Shown here: positions 20,901 through 53,797 of the stretch, piece after piece
Layout: every line of letters begins with the position of its first letter
Position numbering within the stretch: the stretch's first letter is position 1
Assembly (NCBI RefSeq): GCF_030128825.1
Contig: NZ_CP119127.1
Coordinates: forward strand, 2,232,001-2,296,000
Direction of reading: 5' to 3'
DNA from: Sphingobium sp. WTD-1
Lineage (GTDB): Bacteria; Pseudomonadota; Alphaproteobacteria; Sphingomonadales; Sphingomonadaceae
DNA: 64,000 nucleotides
Program-made: the position numbers and the translations under genes
Notes under the pieces: generated by a model
What the model was told of the DNA's origin: nothing
Seen by the model: the letters and a program-made list of their open reading frames with translations, nothing else
Databases searched by the model: none

Positions 20901-21749
20901 GGCGGCGTTGACAAAAGGGATTCCCAATCGGTGCGTGTTCTGATTCAAGGCTGCTCTTTGGGGAGCGGTCATGGATCGAGGGGATTTGTCGGACGCGGAG
21001 TGGGAGTTGATCGGGCCGCTACTCCCGTCCGAGCGTGGGAGGCATGCCCGACCGGCCGGCGATAACCGGCGCTTTCTCAATGGCATGCTGCATGTGCTGC
21101 GGGTCGGTTGCCCGTGGCGCGACATGCACGAGCGCTATGGCAAGTGGAACTCGGTCTATGTCCGGTTCCGGCGCTGGGCGGAGCAAGGCGTCTGGGACGC
21201 CATGCTGCAAACGTTGGTCGATCTGGGCCTCACCGACGACTGGCAGCACATGATCGACAGCACCACGGTTCGCGGCCACGTCTCGGCAGCGGGCGGAAAA
21301 GGGGGGCTTGTGCGCAGGCTTTTGGTCGATCACGCGGCGGCTTTACGAGCAAGATCCACGCCCGCTGTGACAATCAGGGCCTCCCTGTCGGCTTCATCCT
21401 TACCGGCGGCGAGGCATCGGACTATACGGCGGCCGACGATCTGATGAACCTGCCGCTGCCCAAGCCCAGGGCGCTGCTCGCCGACAAAGGCTATGATGGC
21501 GACAGGTTCCGGGAGAACCTGCTCATGCGAGGCATCCTGCCCGTCATCCCGCCGCGCTCCAACCGCAAGGTGCCGGCCCATCCCGACTACCGGCGCTACA
21601 AGGATCGCAATCGTGTCGAGCGCATGTTCGCCAAACTCAAGCAGCAGCGCCGCATCGCCACCCGCTACGACAAGACCGTCCTGTCGTTCGAGAGCTTCAT
21701 CAACCTCGCTGCCGCGCGACTATGGCTGAAAGCTTTTGTCAACACCGCC
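20901..21749 (+). mobile_element. IS5-family (IS427-like) insertion sequence, copy 1
   Basis: An 849-bp element. The ends are imperfect inverted repeats: GGCGGCGTTGACAAAAG on the left and, read inward from the right, GGCGGTGTTGACAAAAG. It is flanked by a TA on each side (20899-20900 and 21750-21751), the target duplication expected for this IS group. A single transposase in two overlapping frames fills it. The second copy at 50395-51243 has the same length and the same encoded protein in opposite orientation, so transposition was recent. Confidence 0.9.
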
Positions 21750-48700: not shown

Positions 48701-48872
48701 CCGCAGAATTCCCTCGCATCTTTGTTATGGAGGCTGTCTTGCGCTCCCCCACTTAGGGCCTTGCCATAATGGGGCTTCCGCGATGGCGCAACCCGCCGTG
48801 GCGCTTTTCACGCCCCGCCGCCCCGCCGATGCTTGCGCGCGCTGCCCCAACTGCCTAAGCGCGCAGGCACGC

Positions 48873-49763
48873 ATGGAAAATTACCCCGCCCCCGCTCGCG
48901 CGCTGGTCGCCGACATGTCGCAAAAGGCCGCTGCCGATCCGGCGCGCGCCGTCGCCTATCAGGGCGCGCCCGGTGCCAATTCGCACCTGGCCGCGCTTGG
49001 CTACGCCCCCGATTGCGTGCCGCTGCCCAGCTTTGCGTTCGAGGATGCGATCGACGCGGTGCGGAACGGTCTTGCCGCCCGGGCGATCATTCCGATCGAG
49101 AACAGCCTGCACGGCCGCGTCGCCGACATGCATTTCCTGCTGCCCGAATCCGGGCTGCACATCGTCGACGAATATTTCCTGCGCATCCGCCACTGCCTGA
49201 TGGCGCCCGACACGGTGCCGGTGAAGAGCGCGATCAGCCATCCGCAGGCGCTGGGCCAGTGCCGCCATTATCTGCGCGAGCGCGGCATCCAGCCGGTCGC
49301 CTATGCCGACACCGCCGGCGCCGCTGCGCTGGTGGCGGAGACGCGGGCGCCGGGCGAGGGGGCGATCGCCCCCTATCTGGCCGCCGAAATCTATGGCCTG
49401 CGCCTGATCGCCGAGAATATCGAGGATAGTGACGACAATATGACCCGCTTCCTGGTGCTGGCGCGCGAGCCCAAGGCGCCGGCGGCGGGCGTCGGCCCGG
49501 TCATGACCACCTTCCTGTTCGAGGTGAAGAATATCCCGGCCGCGCTCTACAAGGCGATGGGCGGCTTTGCGACCAATGGCGTCAACATGACCAAGCTGGA
49601 AAGCTACCAGCGCGGCGCCAGCTTTGCCGCGACCGAATTCTACTGCGATATCGAAGGGATGCCGGGCGACCCGGCGGTCGACCGCGCGCTCGCCGAGCTG
49701 GAATTCCACACCAAATGGGTGCGCGTGCTGGGCAGCTACCGCCAGGCCCGCCCCCGCACCTGA
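48873..49763 (+). CDS. Prephenate dehydratase with ACT domain
   Basis: A 296-residue monofunctional enzyme for phenylalanine synthesis. The catalytic domain contains VAYQGAPGANSHLAALGY, IPIENSLHGRVADMHFLL and the threonine-arginine-phenylalanine block NMTRFLVLARE. The regulatory ACT domain follows with ALYKAMGGFATNGVNMTKLE and SYQRG, the site where phenylalanine binds. The ATG at 48873 (MENYPAPARA) fits related proteins; an upstream ATG at 48783 adding a cysteine-rich stretch is possible. Last gene before the repeat- and IS-rich island. Confidence 0.88.
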   Translation: MENYPAPARALVADMSQKAAADPARAVAYQGAPGANSHLAALGYAPDCVPLPSFAFEDAIDAVRNGLAARAIIPIENSLHGRVADMHFLLPESGLHIVDEYFLRIRHCLMAPDTVPVKSAISHPQALGQCRHYLRERGIQPVAYADTAGAAALVAETRAPGEGAIAPYLAAEIYGLRLIAENIEDSDDNMTRFLVLAREPKAPAAGVGPVMTTFLFEVKNIPAALYKAMGGFATNGVNMTKLESYQRGASFAATEFYCDIEGMPGDPAVDRALAELEFHTKWVRVLGSYRQARPRT

Positions 49764-50128
49764 TTGGTGTGCCCGGCAGAGGGCGGTTTCAGGGTCACTC
49801 CTGGGTCGCTCCAGGGTCATGGCGCGAAGTTCACAGTGTCGTGACGCGATGATATCGGCGTTTTGTGGCCTTTTCGCGCCTGAAACGCACCGCCGACGCG
49901 CCTGTTGGATCACATCCGGGTCATGGCGAAGCGACACCAGGGTCACGGTGACGCGCCTGTTGGGTTGCGGGGGTGGCGGCGTATCGGTGCGCGCGCTGGG
50001 GCGGGATCGCGGCTGGTCCATCGCTGAGGATAGATCAGAGATTGCGCGAGTAGGAAAGGGCGGGCCGATGGTCGGTAGGCAAGCGTCCGGCAGGTTTGCG
50101 GTTTTAACGGCAGGATTGGAGGCGGCGA
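49764..50128. repeat. Gene-free stretch with degenerate direct repeats
   Basis: No supported gene in 365 bases. GGGTCATGGCG occurs at 49814-49824 and 49918-49928, 104 bases apart; GACGCGCCTGTTGG occurs at 49895-49908 and 49950-49963, 55 bases apart; and GGGTCA or GGGTCG recurs about every 13-50 bases between 49794 and 49945. The pattern suggests a decayed tandem array with a unit near 52 bases. It marks the left edge of the island that carries the second IS copy. Confidence 0.5.
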
Positions 50129-50391
50129 CTAGGCGGCTTTGTAGGTCTGCAAGACAACGTGATTTTCGAGGGCGTCTGCGAAAGATCGCATCAATTCGAC
50201 GGTTCCATTCGCTACCTCATTGAGATCTTCCATGGCGATAAGTGTCTCCTCTCCATGTGCAATGGAATTTCGACGTTTGAGCAGCACTACATCAATGAAG
50301 GTCGATGCGTCGGAAAATGGCTTTGTATCCACACAGCAGATGACACAAATATCTGAAAAAACTTCGAAATTTAGGTTTGCCTTTGTGTTGA

Positions 50392-51173
50392 TTAGGCGGT
50401 GTTGACAAAAGCTTTCAGCCATAGTCGCGCGGCAGCGAGGTTGATGAAGCTCTCGAACGACAGGACGGTCTTGTCGTAGCGGGTGGCGATGCGGCGCTGC
50501 TGCTTGAGTTTGGCGAACATGCGCTCGACACGATTGCGATCCTTGTAGCGCCGGTAGTCGGGATGGGCCGGCACCTTGCGGTTGGAGCGCGGCGGGATGA
50601 CGGGCAGGATGCCTCGCATGAGCAGGTTCTCCCGGAACCTGTCGCCATCATAGCCTTTGTCGGCGAGCAGCGCCCTGGGCTTGGGCAGCGGCAGGTTCAT
50701 CAGATCGTCGGCCGCCGTATAGTCCGATGCCTCGCCGCCGGTAAGGATGAAGCCGACAGGGAGGCCCTGATTGTCACAGCGGGCGTGGATCTTGCTCGTA
50801 AAGCCGCCGCGTGATCGACCAAAAGCCTGCGCACAAGCCCCCCTTTTCCGCCCGCTGCCGAGACGTGGCCGCGAACCGTGGTGCTGTCGATCATGTGCTG
50901 CCAGTCGTCGGTGAGGCCCAGATCGACCAACGTTTGCAGCATGGCGTCCCAGACGCCTTGCTCCGCCCAGCGCCGGAACCGGACATAGACCGAGTTCCAC
51001 TTGCCATAGCGCTCGTGCATGTCGCGCCACGGGCAACCGACCCGCAGCACATGCAGCATGCCATTGAGAAAGCGCCGGTTATCGCCGGCCGGTCGGGCAT
51101 GCCTCCCACGCTCGGACGGGAGTAGCGGCCCGATCAACTCCCACTCCGCGTCCGACAAATCCCCTCGATCCAT
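50392..51173 (-). CDS. IS5-family transposase, two frames joined by -1 frameshift (copy 2)
   Basis: Identical in translation to the transposase at 20971-21752. First frame 51173-50700, second frame entered by -1 slippage at the poly-A/G run near 50838-50847. The stop codon of the second frame is TAA, made of the target TA plus one flanking base; at copy 1 the same position reads TAG. Aspartates in MIDSTTVRGH and LADKGYDGD and the glutamate in RNRVERMF form the DDE triad, so the enzyme should be active. Confidence 0.85.
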
Positions 51174-51243
51174 GACCGCTCCCCAAAGAGCAGCCTTGAA
51201 TCAGAACACGCACCGATTGGGAATCCCTTTTGTCAACGCCGCC
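50395..51243 (-). mobile_element. IS5-family (IS427-like) insertion sequence, copy 2
   Basis: 849 bp, the same length and ends as copy 1 but in opposite orientation, flanked by TA at 50393-50394 and 51244-51245. It lies inside the HEPN-like gene. The two copies, 28.6 kb apart on inner edges, are long enough to recombine and invert the intervening DNA. Confidence 0.9.
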
Positions 51244-51623
51244 TAGGTCTTCGTTGACACGGTTGAACCGTCGGTCGGAAGAGGTAAGTATCTCTTCGAC
51301 TAAGGTGCATCGTTCGGCAATGCTCAGCTTTCCACCGTTGGTGTACGCAAGTTTGGGAAGGAAATAATTTTTGAAAAATTGAGGGCCGAGCTGGCTATAT
51401 GGGAATTTCCGCAACGCGATATGTTCGAGATATTTTTTTGCAGTGAAGCGAACATATCCTTCCCAATGGGCATAGCAGATGGTGACAAGTGCTCTTAATA
51501 GCACTCGCCGTACCCCGCTGTCCCCTTGGCGTATTGCTGCCTTGAGATCGGAAATCTCCTTCATCCGCCAATTACGATCTTCAGTGATCTGGGCCGAAAA
51601 ATCGGCTTCCGAATATGGTTTGC

Positions 51624-52736
51624 TCACGGCATGAACCACGCTTCACCAAACGGAACCGTTCGTTGAATGCGAACAGTACCGCGTAGTCCCGGTGATGTGA
51701 AAGATGCCACATTAGGCTGTTCCCAGAAGGTCTCGATCTTTTGTTTCACAAAATCTTTGGCGGCCTGATCTCCGAGCGCCTGAATGGCTGCAAGATTCTT
51801 AGCGACGCCAACAGCGATTGCTTCGAGACCAACTAAGCCAACTCTACCGGTGTGTTGGCCGTTTTCAAAACGCCGAAGTGCATTGCCTGCCGCTATCTCG
51901 TGCAACAGGCCAAAGGTGCTATTAATTAAATTCACCGCTTGAGCAGCATCGCCCTCTCTCGCAAGGGTAACGGCACTCTCATCGATATACTCTTCGACGT
52001 CTAATCGGCCATCGTAAGGTACAAGTGTATGAGCGAGGAACCGCATCGCAAGTTCCATATGTCGTTGTTTTTCTTGTTGATCATCGCTCAATGAAATAAC
52101 TGCTTGAAATGAAGCTTGTTCAGCTGCCATCTTAATGGCGCGATAGTATACGCCATTTACCATAAGAACAACGCAATTGCGAAGTTCTTGAGCATTCGCT
52201 TGGGTTCCGCCTGCGTTTAGACGTTGAAACAGATCGTACTTCGTTTGATCATCGCTTGGACGTTTCAATATTTCAACTGCGATCCTGCTTCGGCGAATTG
52301 CAAGTTGCAGGCTTTTGTCGATGCTAGACTGATCGACTTCCGGAACATCCTCGATCCGGTCTGATTTTTGCCAAACCGCATTATGCAATGAGGGCAGGTA
52401 CTTTGTGGCCTCAAGGATCGACGGCGGGCGTAGCCCGCCACCTTCGCGCAAACGCCCCATAAATTCCAAAATGGTTGAAATTCTTTGTAGGCCGTCGATC
52501 AGCTCCCAGGTGCCATCCTCTTTTTCAAAGACAAAAATGGATGGAATCGGAATTCCTAGCAGTAGAGATTCAATTAATTTCGATTTCTGACCAATCTCCC
52601 ATCGGAATAGTCGCTGAAATTCTGGATCTATTGTTATTTCTTCATCTTCATACATCGTAACAATTTCGCCGATAGACATTTGATAGGCGTCGGTCTTCAC
52701 TAAACGCTGTGCCTGCTCAATTTCATTCAGAAGCAT
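51624..52736 (-). CDS. DUF262 (ParB/Srx-fold) protein
   Basis: A 370-residue protein. The N-terminal DUF262 domain has PEFQRLFRW at 38-46 and IDGLQRIST with Asp81, Gln84 and Arg85, the DGxQR motif of the ParB-like nucleotide-binding or nuclease fold, followed by LFQRLNAGGTQANAQELRN. A helical C-terminal region completes it. DUF262 is the N-terminal half of GmrSD type IV restriction enzymes and occurs in many predicted defence genes. GC content is clearly lower than the neighbours, suggesting transfer. It overlaps the HEPN-like gene downstream by 4 to 16 bases, so both were translated together. Confidence 0.85.
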   Translation of the reverse strand: MLLNEIEQAQRLVKTDAYQMSIGEIVTMYEDEEITIDPEFQRLFRWEIGQKSKLIESLLLGIPIPSIFVFEKEDGTWELIDGLQRISTILEFMGRLREGGGLRPPSILEATKYLPSLHNAVWQKSDRIEDVPEVDQSSIDKSLQLAIRRSRIAVEILKRPSDDQTKYDLFQRLNAGGTQANAQELRNCVVLMVNGVYYRAIKMAAEQASFQAVISLSDDQQEKQRHMELAMRFLAHTLVPYDGRLDVEEYIDESAVTLAREGDAAQAVNLINSTFGLLHEIAAGNALRRFENGQHTGRVGLVGLEAIAVGVAKNLAAIQALGDQAAKDFVKQKIETFWEQPNVASFTSPGLRGTVRIQRTVPFGEAWFMP

Positions 52737-53068
52737 TGGATGGCCCTCAGAGATAATCTTGCGTTGCCGCTTTCGATATCGGCGTTTCTGTACACACTAA
52801 CAGGGATGGGATGGTCGGCAAGAAGCGGTGGCGCAATGATTTGAAGATCGCGAGGCGGATCGCCGGGAAGCCGGCACCCGCGATTGTGTTCGGAGGCTGC
52901 GACTTTGTGCCAAGCTCAGTCATTCCTAGCCAGGCGGCTTGCACGAGAATGTCCGCTGTTGGGACAGGTAATCGCATCACCAAACGATCAGCTTTGGCGC
53001 CAACCAGCATCCACCCCCTCCCCACCCCTCCGCTTCCGCTCCCCCGCAATCACCGCTATAGCCCCGCC
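52737..53068. other. Gene-free stretch right of the DUF262 gene
   Basis: 332 bases with no supported gene. Open frames on both strands run through it but lack ribosome binding sites and have mixed codon use. A C-rich tract (CCACCCCCTCCCCACCCCTC at about 53011-53030) precedes the desaturase start. The promoter of the DUF262 gene should lie in the left part, which is AT-richer. It marks the return to high-GC core sequence. Confidence 0.5.
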
Positions 53069-53797
53069 ATGGTCGCTGCGATCCTCTTGTCCGCGCTGGC
53101 GATGACGCTGATCGTCGGGGTGCGCTATCTGATTGCCAGTGGCGGCTTTGCGCTGGCGACGCGGGTGCGGCAGCCGGGCCTCTATCGCGGGCAGGGGCGG
53201 CAGATATCGCGGGAGATTGGCTGGTCGCTGGCGTCCGCGGCCATCTATGGCATCCCCGCCGGTATCGTCGCCTGGGGCTGGCAGGCGCGGGGCTGGACGC
53301 GCATCTATGAGGATGTCGGCGGCTATCCGCTCTGGTATCTGCCGGTGTCGGTGCTGCTCTATCTCGCCGCGCATGACACATGGTTCTACTGGACGCACCG
53401 GTGGATGCACGCGCCCCGGCTGTTCCGCATCGCCCATGCCGTCCATCATGCGAGCCGGCCACCGACCGCCTGGGCGGCGATGAGCTTTCATCCGTGGGAG
53501 GCGCTGACCGGGGCGGTGGTGATCCCGGCGCTGGTCTTCCTGATCCCGATCCATGTCGGCGCGCTGGGCGTGGTGCTGTCGATCATGACGATCATGGGCG
53601 TGTCCAACCATATGGGGTGGGAGATGTTTCCGCGCTGGATGGTGCGCGGGCCGATCGGCCGCTGGCTGATCACCGCCAGCCATCATCAGCGGCATCATGA
53701 GCAATATCGGTGCAATTATGGCCTCTATTTTCGTGTCTGGGACCGGCTGTGCGGCACCGACCGGGGGCTGGGTGAATTCAGGGAGAAGCAGGCGTGA
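53069..53797 (+). CDS. Sterol-desaturase / fatty-acid-hydroxylase family protein
   Basis: A 242-residue membrane protein with the histidine clusters of this di-iron family: HDTWFYWTHRWMH, HAVHH and, near the end, HHQRHHEQY. Four hydrophobic helices. In related bacteria one such enzyme hydroxylates carotenoids (CrtZ-like) and others act on lipids; the sequence does not decide. The ATG at 53069 begins the first helix. Its stop overlaps the GTG of the following DUF2141 gene (GTGA). Confidence 0.8.
   Translation: MVAAILLSALAMTLIVGVRYLIASGGFALATRVRQPGLYRGQGRQISREIGWSLASAAIYGIPAGIVAWGWQARGWTRIYEDVGGYPLWYLPVSVLLYLAAHDTWFYWTHRWMHAPRLFRIAHAVHHASRPPTAWAAMSFHPWEALTGAVVIPALVFLIPIHVGALGVVLSIMTIMGVSNHMGWEMFPRWMVRGPIGRWLITASHHQRHHEQYRCNYGLYFRVWDRLCGTDRGLGEFREKQA

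What the first reader, a model, noticed from the sequence alone, without database searches (positions are those of the whole stretch)
50129..52736. DUF262 plus HEPN two-gene module with the HEPN gene cut by an IS
A lower-GC pair: an intact DUF262 gene (DGLQR motif) and, overlapping it, a gene with a predicted HEPN fold (YAHWEGYVRF and RRNSIAHGEE). The IS falls between the N-terminal half and the RxxxxH motif. Deleting the IS and one TA restores a seamless 219-codon frame, so the interruption is recent and the ancestral protein can be reconstructed exactly. DUF262 is the nuclease-like half of GmrSD and HEPN proteins are predicted RNases, so the pair looks like a toxin-guard or phage-defence module. 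Selective loss of the effector while the partner stays intact is what relief from a costly toxin would give. Whether this pair is already named among defence systems I cannot tell.
Basis: partly seen in the sequence, partly recalled or inferred. Interest (0 to 1): 0.8.

Follow-up and report, generated by a model that had tools for sequence, protein, structure and literature searches.

The report
Phage-defence gene pair in swap site
A two-gene unit that probably protects bacteria from viruses, its second gene split by a jumping gene, sits in a small chromosomal slot where close relatives carry other, mostly defence-like, genes; related pairs are widespread and a similar one was already known to stop a virus.

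Summary
DUF262 (PF03235, 3.5e-26) overlaps a downstream HEPN gene (PF18735/PF18737), which an 849-bp IS5-family element splits, TA on both sides; the genome holds 13 identical copies. In 21 of 21 named homologous loci the two halves align to adjacent residues, so the split is clean.

The pair is real: HEPN follows DUF262 in 21 of 21 named loci and 77 of 80 IMG/VR loci (the other 3 end at the contig edge). The closest named system is PD-T4-2, a DUF262+HEPN system that blocks T4. This is a separate lineage whose HEPN no PADLOC-DB 2.0.0 model recognised here.

New here: the pair occupies a slot between pheA and a desaturase-like gene. It is empty in 54 of 60 measured genomes of the genus; six occupied copies hold six different contents, mostly resembling defence or toxin-antitoxin genes.

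"Selective loss of the effector" is not supported: breaks fall on either gene, and the low-GC pair has about ten times the density of the element's target sites. DUF262 is the NTP-binding half of GmrSD, not the nuclease. Defence by an NTPase-gated RNase remains an inference; no structure could be predicted.

The parts
51624..52736 (-). DUF262 (GmrSD_N) protein, 370 aa, motif DGLQR; predicted NTP-binding sensor/regulator
   Evidence: PF03235 3.5e-26; PADLOC NsnA 3.9e-55, PD-T4-2_A 8.3e-36; D81 G82 Q84 R85 invariant in 22 aligned
51244..51627 (-). N-terminal part of the split HEPN gene (likely start GTG 51627, overlapping the DUF262 stop)
   Evidence: PF18735 1.1e-16, PF18737 7.2e-17 for the piece 51244-51639; start position from 21 homologues
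50129..50392 (-). C-terminal part of the split HEPN gene with the RNSIAH (RxxxxH) motif
   Evidence: PF18735 5.6e-12, PF18737 1.4e-9; R169 N170 H174 G175 invariant in 26 aligned homologues
50395..51243 (-). IS5-family insertion sequence, 849 bp, two overlapping transposase ORFs
   Evidence: 19-nt inverted repeat pair 50393-50411 / 51227-51245, which includes the flanking TA; NF033580; 13 identical copies in the genome, this one included
50393..50394 (.). TA, one flank of the IS (target duplication)
51244..51245 (.). TA, other flank of the IS
49764..50058 (+). intergenic leader shared by the five sister strains, left of the cassette
   Evidence: alignment of five strains
50028..50058 (+). 31-bp dispersed repeat motif whose end coincides with the cassette edge; 10 copies in the genome at up to 3 mismatches
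   Evidence: reversed-pattern control 0
50059..53022 (.). variable cassette: other genes stand here in four sister strains
48852..49763 (+). prephenate dehydratase gene (pheA), left flank of the slot (start as used for the query)
   Evidence: PF00800 homologues, some named prephenate dehydratase
53069..53797 (+). right flank of the slot; a desaturase/hydroxylase-like membrane gene (name recalled, not scanned; start as used for the query)
   Evidence: match at 1e-60 in 82 of 94 genomes of the genus, own included

Best explanation
This is a horizontally moving two-gene anti-phage module: DUF262, an NTP-binding sensor, translationally coupled to a HEPN RNase. It landed in a clade-specific defence slot and was then inactivated by a chance IS5-family insertion in the HEPN gene. 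Inferred mechanism: DUF262 recognises a sign of infection (modified or foreign DNA, as in GmrSD, BrxU and SspE), its NTPase cycle releases or activates the HEPN partner, and the HEPN cuts RNA, stopping phage growth or the cell. Shown here: domains, pairing, gene overlap, conserved motifs, co-evolution, site and insertion. Inferred: NTPase, RNase, trigger and defence.
For: Domains. Adjacency in 21 of 21 named loci, 77 of 80 IMG/VR loci, the other 3 ending at the contig edge, and 7 of 7 other genomes of a 398-genome phylum sample with a DUF262 match at 1e-40. Start/stop overlap in 21 of 21. Distance matrices of the two proteins correlate: r 0.875 in 20 close pairs, 0.981 in 26; 0 of 10000 permutations reach this. 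DGxQR in 80 of 80 IMG/VR copies; R[ND]xxxH in 69 of 77 HEPN matches, six of the other eight having RxxxxH with another second residue and two being cut short. Pair carried on plasmids and phages. Six occupied slots among 60 measured, all with different contents. PD-T4-2, of the same two domains, blocks T4 and its deletion restores plaquing (PMC9519451 section 7; domain table passages of PMC10952713).
Against: No experiment on this lineage was found. No defence enrichment in the flanks of 21 homologous loci (8 PADLOC models, one member each, among 118 ORFs at 1e-20, against 2 models, one member each, among 64 control ORFs), though the ORF picking was crude and biased against low-GC genes. Of 15 intact HEPN homologues scanned with PADLOC, 13 had no hit, among them all 7 close ones; one more distant (L079) hit PD-T4-2_B at 4.4e-4 and one (L032) Cas13a at 1e-4. 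Eleven more distant DUF262 proteins of the genus have no HEPN match within about 1.5 kb, so DUF262 alone does not imply the pair. In N. capsulatum the HEPN ORF survives with DUF262 broken. No structure was obtained.
Confidence: 0.62

Rival explanations
1. Classical toxin-antitoxin pair: HEPN is a toxin held by DUF262 as antitoxin, kept for stabilisation of mobile DNA rather than phage defence.
For: Two coupled genes on plasmids and viral contigs; a ParE-type gene lies in the same slot in one relative.
Against: DUF262 precedes HEPN and is 370 aa with a conserved DGxQR motif, unlike a small antitoxin; one genome keeps an intact HEPN ORF with a broken DUF262, although polarity could silence it; PD-T4-2 is a defence system.
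Confidence: 0.2
2. Direct restriction-like immunity: DUF262 guides HEPN onto phage nucleic acid, and the cell survives.
For: DUF262 in GmrSD and BrxU goes with cleavage of modified DNA; 9 of 21 systems in the E. coli screen act by direct inhibition.
Against: Most HEPN domains are described as RNases (start of the PMC3710099 abstract); the text that I read does not say which class PD-T4-2 belongs to.
Confidence: 0.15
3. The HEPN gene was lost under selection because the toxin is costly.
For: HEPN is the broken half in the window and in Massilia arenae.
Against: DUF262 alone is broken in N. capsulatum and apparently in L168; no HEPN-only break among 76 IMG/VR loci. YTAR sites are 16 in 1.76 kb of module against 51 in about 61 kb of other window sequence, and the IS has 13 identical copies, so a chance hit is enough.
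Confidence: 0.1

Closest known systems
PD-T4-2 (Vassallo et al. 2022)
   Same: Two genes, DUF262 and HEPN, DUF262 first in the three loci seen; blocks T4; similar DUF262 length (362-377 aa).
   Different: Judged on three genomes that match the PD-T4-2_B model, not on the original E. coli genes: DUF262 25-27% identical, in a separate clade (100/100); HEPN 165-169 aa with no meaningful BLAST match to this family, against 215 aa here.
MAE_28990 and RiboL-PSP HEPN families in operon with ParB-like genes (Anantharaman et al. 2013)
   Same: Same HEPN families (PF18737, PF18735); the paper's table lists operons with a ParB nuclease (passages).
   Different: A genomic prediction in the passages seen; the table adds DNA methylase genes for MAE_28990, whereas the window's cassette holds none.
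GmrSD, BrxU, SspE
   Same: DUF262 domain with the DGxQR-type NTP pocket; sequence matches to a solved DUF262 protein, 7p9k, 4.1e-5 (that it is BrxU is recalled), and weakly to SspE 6jiv, 0.021.
   Different: Their effector is DUF1524 (HNH-like); here a separate HEPN.
Menshen / PADLOC NsnA
   Same: The best PADLOC hit of the DUF262 protein is NsnA, 3.9e-55.
   Different: No NsnB-type ATPase in the cassette. That Nsn is PADLOC's label for Menshen is recalled, not from a call.
Core defence hotspots of P. aeruginosa; mobile defence islands of E. coli
   Same: A fixed site between core genes holding varying defence genes (PMC10250203 passages; PMC10121019 abstract).
   Different: Very small cassettes (2.2-3.0 kb in the five sister strains, one or two main genes besides IS); no integrase recognised; among 60 genomes occupied in one clade and one other genome.

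Membership tests
PD-T4-2 | DUF262 gene matching PD-T4-2_A | tested here: met
   8.3e-36, 121.8 bits, but NsnA scores higher, 185.7 bits
PD-T4-2 | HEPN gene matching PD-T4-2_B | tested here: not met
   No hit for the window pieces at E up to 10 or for 7 of 7 close intact homologues
PD-T4-2 | DUF262 groups with PD-T4-2 DUF262 in a tree | tested here: not met
   Separate clades, 100/100 and 100/99; PD-T4-2 represented by three genomes found with its HEPN model
PD-T4-2 | Protects against T-even phages | not testable with these tools
   Needs bench work
MAE_28990 / RiboL-PSP HEPN (PF18737, PF18735) | Profile match above gathering score | tested here: met
   Both halves; intact Labrys homologue 1.8e-36 (PF18735) and 9.9e-32 (PF18737)
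MAE_28990 / RiboL-PSP HEPN (PF18737, PF18735) | RxxxxH catalytic motif | tested here: met
   RNSIAH in the window; R, N, H, G invariant in 26
GmrSD | DUF1524 nuclease domain | tested here: not met
   Only PF03235 in the DUF262 protein
Menshen (NsnABC) | NsnB/NsnC partner genes | tested here: not met
   The cassette holds DUF262, HEPN and IS ORFs; no NsnB or NsnC among the 8 models hit by 118 neighbour ORFs of 21 loci at 1e-20. The window's wider flanks were not scanned
Defence hotspot | Same flanks, empty in most relatives, different defence cargo | tested here: met
   54 of 60 empty; six occupied with different contents, one of them (G093) only weakly defence-like and one (G064) ParE-like
Defence hotspot | Carried by a recognisable mobile element | tested here: inconclusive
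   Six cassette ORFs of the four sister strains were scanned and none is a recombinase; G036 has an IS5-like transposase by DNA similarity. The way of exchange was not tested

The most novel reading that the evidence does not exclude
A distinct, widespread lineage of DUF262-HEPN defence whose DUF262 NTPase gates a 215-aa RNase, sitting in a slot where one- and two-gene defence cassettes replace each other exactly at the end of a dispersed intergenic repeat, the repeat serving as a landing or exchange sequence without an integrase.
Probability: 0.15. Interest if true: 0.7.

Novelty: new variant of a known kind. Interest (0 to 1): 0.48.

Why it matters
It extends the DUF262-HEPN kind of defence, for which PD-T4-2 is the one validated example that I found, to a lineage present in Proteobacteria, Acidobacteria and Nitrospinota, with relatives on IMG/VR viral contigs, and whose HEPN no PADLOC-DB 2.0.0 model recognised. 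The slot gives a ready comparison: five closely related strains that differ at one site by one or two genes each, mostly defence-like.

Tried and rejected
Selective loss of the effector: rejected (breaks on either side, target-site density). Strict PD-T4-2 membership: rejected (PD-T4-2_B not matched, separate clade). Menshen: rejected (no partner in the cassette). Defence-island enrichment in the flanks of the 21 named loci: tested, not found. Repeat motif as a general marker of defence loci: 64 ORFs around nine other copies in the genome gave two PADLOC models with one member each at 1e-20, both in my judgement generic, so rejected as a general rule. Rfam on 49700-53200: nothing above gathering score. 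Solved structures: no sequence match for the HEPN profile at E up to 1. The phylum sample of 398 genomes gave only 8 with a DUF262 match at 1e-40 and 3 with a HEPN match at 1e-15, own genome included in both, too few for a survey of breaks. Paper searches for NsnA and Menshen gave nothing useful. Structure prediction was tried 18 times and each time the queue was full, so no fold was obtained and no fold search was made.

Full report
Host. The window lies in a 5.67-Mb genome in 6 contigs.

What is there. On the minus strand a 370-aa DUF262 protein (51624-52736) matches PF03235 at 3.5e-26. Its stop codon overlaps the start of a HEPN gene. The HEPN gene is cut by an 849-bp IS5-family element (50395-51243) with TA on both sides. 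Searched apart, its halves match PF18735 (1.1e-16 and 5.6e-12) and PF18737 (7.2e-17 and 1.4e-9), all above the curated cut-off. The genome holds 13 full-length identical copies of the element; in 10 of the 10 copies whose flanks I read, TA stands on both sides of the element within a YTAR target.

Is the split clean? In all 21 named loci found with the DUF262 protein the two HEPN halves align to adjacent residues, and in 20 of these 21 the HEPN frame is open to its end; the exception is Massilia arenae, with a stop at codon 26. The start used by the family is the NTGA overlap in 21 of 21.

Is the pair real? HEPN follows DUF262 in 21 of 21 named loci. In IMG/VR, 156 stretches encode a relative and the best 80 were kept, some near-identical; 76 have a HEPN profile match within 400 bp downstream, one more (L140) has it in a longer overlapping frame, and the remaining three end 0-45 bp after the DUF262 gene. 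In a sample of 398 genomes of the phylum, 8 have a DUF262 match at 1e-40; the seven besides the window's all have a HEPN match beside it. In the genus, 4 of 4 other genomes with a DUF262 at 38% identity or more over nearly its whole length have the HEPN, and 0 of 11 with more distant or partial DUF262 matches do, within about 1.5 kb. Distances between the two proteins correlate (r 0.875 for 20 close pairs; r 0.981 for 26; 0 of 10000 permutations; the broken loci, the window's and L032-L034 were not included). RefSeq already names such neighbours "DUF262 domain-containing protein" and "MAE_28990/MAE_18760 family HEPN-like nuclease" on two plasmids that I opened. The module is low in GC in most of the high-GC hosts looked at: 0.485 against 0.658 in Labrys, 0.474 against 0.693 in Alsobacter, but 0.574 against 0.582 in Mesorhizobium (7 loci). 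Copies above 60% identity are present in 2 of 94 genomes of the genus, own included. All this fits horizontal movement.

How it probably works. DUF262 in GmrS, BrxU and SspE is linked to NTP binding or hydrolysis and, with DUF1524, to cutting or nicking of DNA (PMC10952713 passages). Here the DGxQR motif is kept in 80 of 80 IMG/VR copies. Of 77 HEPN matches, 69 have R[ND]xxxH; six of the other eight have RxxxxH with another residue in second place, and two are cut short. Most HEPN domains are described as RNases (start of the PMC3710099 abstract). I therefore propose a sensor NTPase that switches on an RNase. The trigger, the RNA target and the outcome for the cell are not shown.

Relation to PD-T4-2. 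PD-T4-2 combines DUF262 with a HEPN (table in PMC10952713, passages), protects E. coli against T4, and its deletion in ECOR65 raises plaquing of T4 dramatically (PMC9519451 section 7). I did not have the original genes. Three of 398 sampled genomes match PD-T4-2_B; in all three a DUF262 gene lies directly before it, 25-27% identical to the window's over 235-323 residues, and no meaningful BLAST match joins the two HEPNs. In a tree of 29 DUF262 proteins, the three PD-T4-2 proteins form one clade (100/100) and 13 with PF18735/PF18737-type partners, the window's among them, another (100/99); four further HEPN-paired proteins (L077 on a plasmid, L076 and L081 on phages, L079 on a small plasmid) fall elsewhere, so HEPN pairing is not one group.

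The slot. Of 94 genomes of the genus, 82 have the right-flank gene and 93 have pheA at 1e-60; in 60, the window's included, both lie on one contig in the same order. The other 34 could not be measured. The gap is 33-205 bp in 54 of the 60, 710 bp in one and 2589-3308 bp in five. The five are the window's genome and its four closest relatives by the right-flank protein. They share both edges but not the contents: DUF262-HEPN with the IS; a TIR protein (PADLOC TIR-TM 1.3e-68) with an IS5-like element and a 138-aa ORF without match; a 662-aa ATPase (best hit AriA 4.4e-19, generic); an AriA-like ATPase (1.7e-36) with a weak AriB match beside it (3.4e-7; DUF4435 just below cut-off); and an Mrr-type enzyme (7.3e-67). 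The sixth, G064, only 60% complete, holds two short ORFs, the second a ParE toxin (2.7e-9), the first without a match. Of eight cassette ORFs of the five strains, IS excluded, 4 hit PADLOC at 1e-20, against 2 of 64 ORFs elsewhere in this genome (Fisher p 9e-4); the comparison was chosen after seeing the cassettes, and the control ORFs lie near other copies of the repeat. The left edge coincides with the end of a 31-bp motif present 10 times in the genome at up to 3 mismatches (0 in the reversed-pattern control), preceded, by eye, by GCGACA-like repeats. Whether this repeat matters for exchange is open.

Against. The flanks of the 21 named loci show no excess of defence genes: 8 PADLOC models, one member each, in 118 ORFs, against 2 models, one member each, in 64. 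ORFs were picked by length and GC3, which works against low-GC accessory genes. PADLOC models hit 2 of 15 intact HEPN homologues scanned, weakly, and none of the 7 close ones. No structure was obtained, and no test of function for this lineage appears in what I read. My paper searches for DUF262 with HEPN and phage found two papers, DUF262 with HEPN from 2022 on one, and MAE_28990 with HEPN one, in a library that lacks most subscription journals. Of these papers I read passages, plus one whole section of PMC9519451.

Selective loss. HEPN alone is broken in the window and in M. arenae; DUF262 alone in N. capsulatum (insertion of about 3.1 kb, IS66-like by my recall, 8-bp duplication). Of the 80 IMG/VR loci four are cut by a contig edge; of the other 76, 74 have both genes long enough in one frame, L168 has an apparent frameshift in DUF262 alone and L199 in both. 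YTAR sites: 12 in DUF262, 4 in the HEPN pieces (the occupied site not counted), 51 in about 61 kb of other window sequence. Chance explains the insertion.

Verdict. A real, mobile, probably anti-phage pair, new as a lineage but of a known kind, inactivated here most likely by chance; the most interesting part is the small slot in which mostly defence-like cassettes replace one another.

Noticed in passing
window 50028-50058 and nine other places in the genome: A 31-bp motif ending GAGTAGGAAAG, preceded by GCGACA-type repeats, recurs 10 times in the genome (up to 3 mismatches) and ends exactly at the cassette edge in five strains.
   Followed up: partly
window 20901-21749: A second identical copy of the same IS, opposite strand, with CTA/TAG flanks.
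   Followed up: no
L027:2486-6762: Novosphingobium capsulatum: an element of about 3.1 kb (IS66-like by recall) with an 8-bp duplication splits the DUF262 gene while the HEPN stays open.
   Followed up: yes
L026:7104-7739: Massilia arenae: HEPN with an in-frame stop at codon 26 and intact DUF262.
   Followed up: yes
L129:91-1350: A PD-T4-2-type pair in another genome lies beside an Mrr-type gene that by eye resembles the one in the slot of sister strain G092.
   Followed up: no
L079: A 3.9-kb E. coli plasmid with four annotated genes: a DUF262-HEPN pair, a VbhA-family antitoxin and a replication gene; its HEPN weakly matches PD-T4-2_B.
   Followed up: no
L080:2992-5724: Psychrobacter plasmid: the DUF262-HEPN pair next to a BsuBI/PstI-family type II restriction gene.
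   Followed up: no
L125:876-1449: A ParE-type gene and a short upstream ORF occupy the same slot in genome G064.
   Followed up: partly
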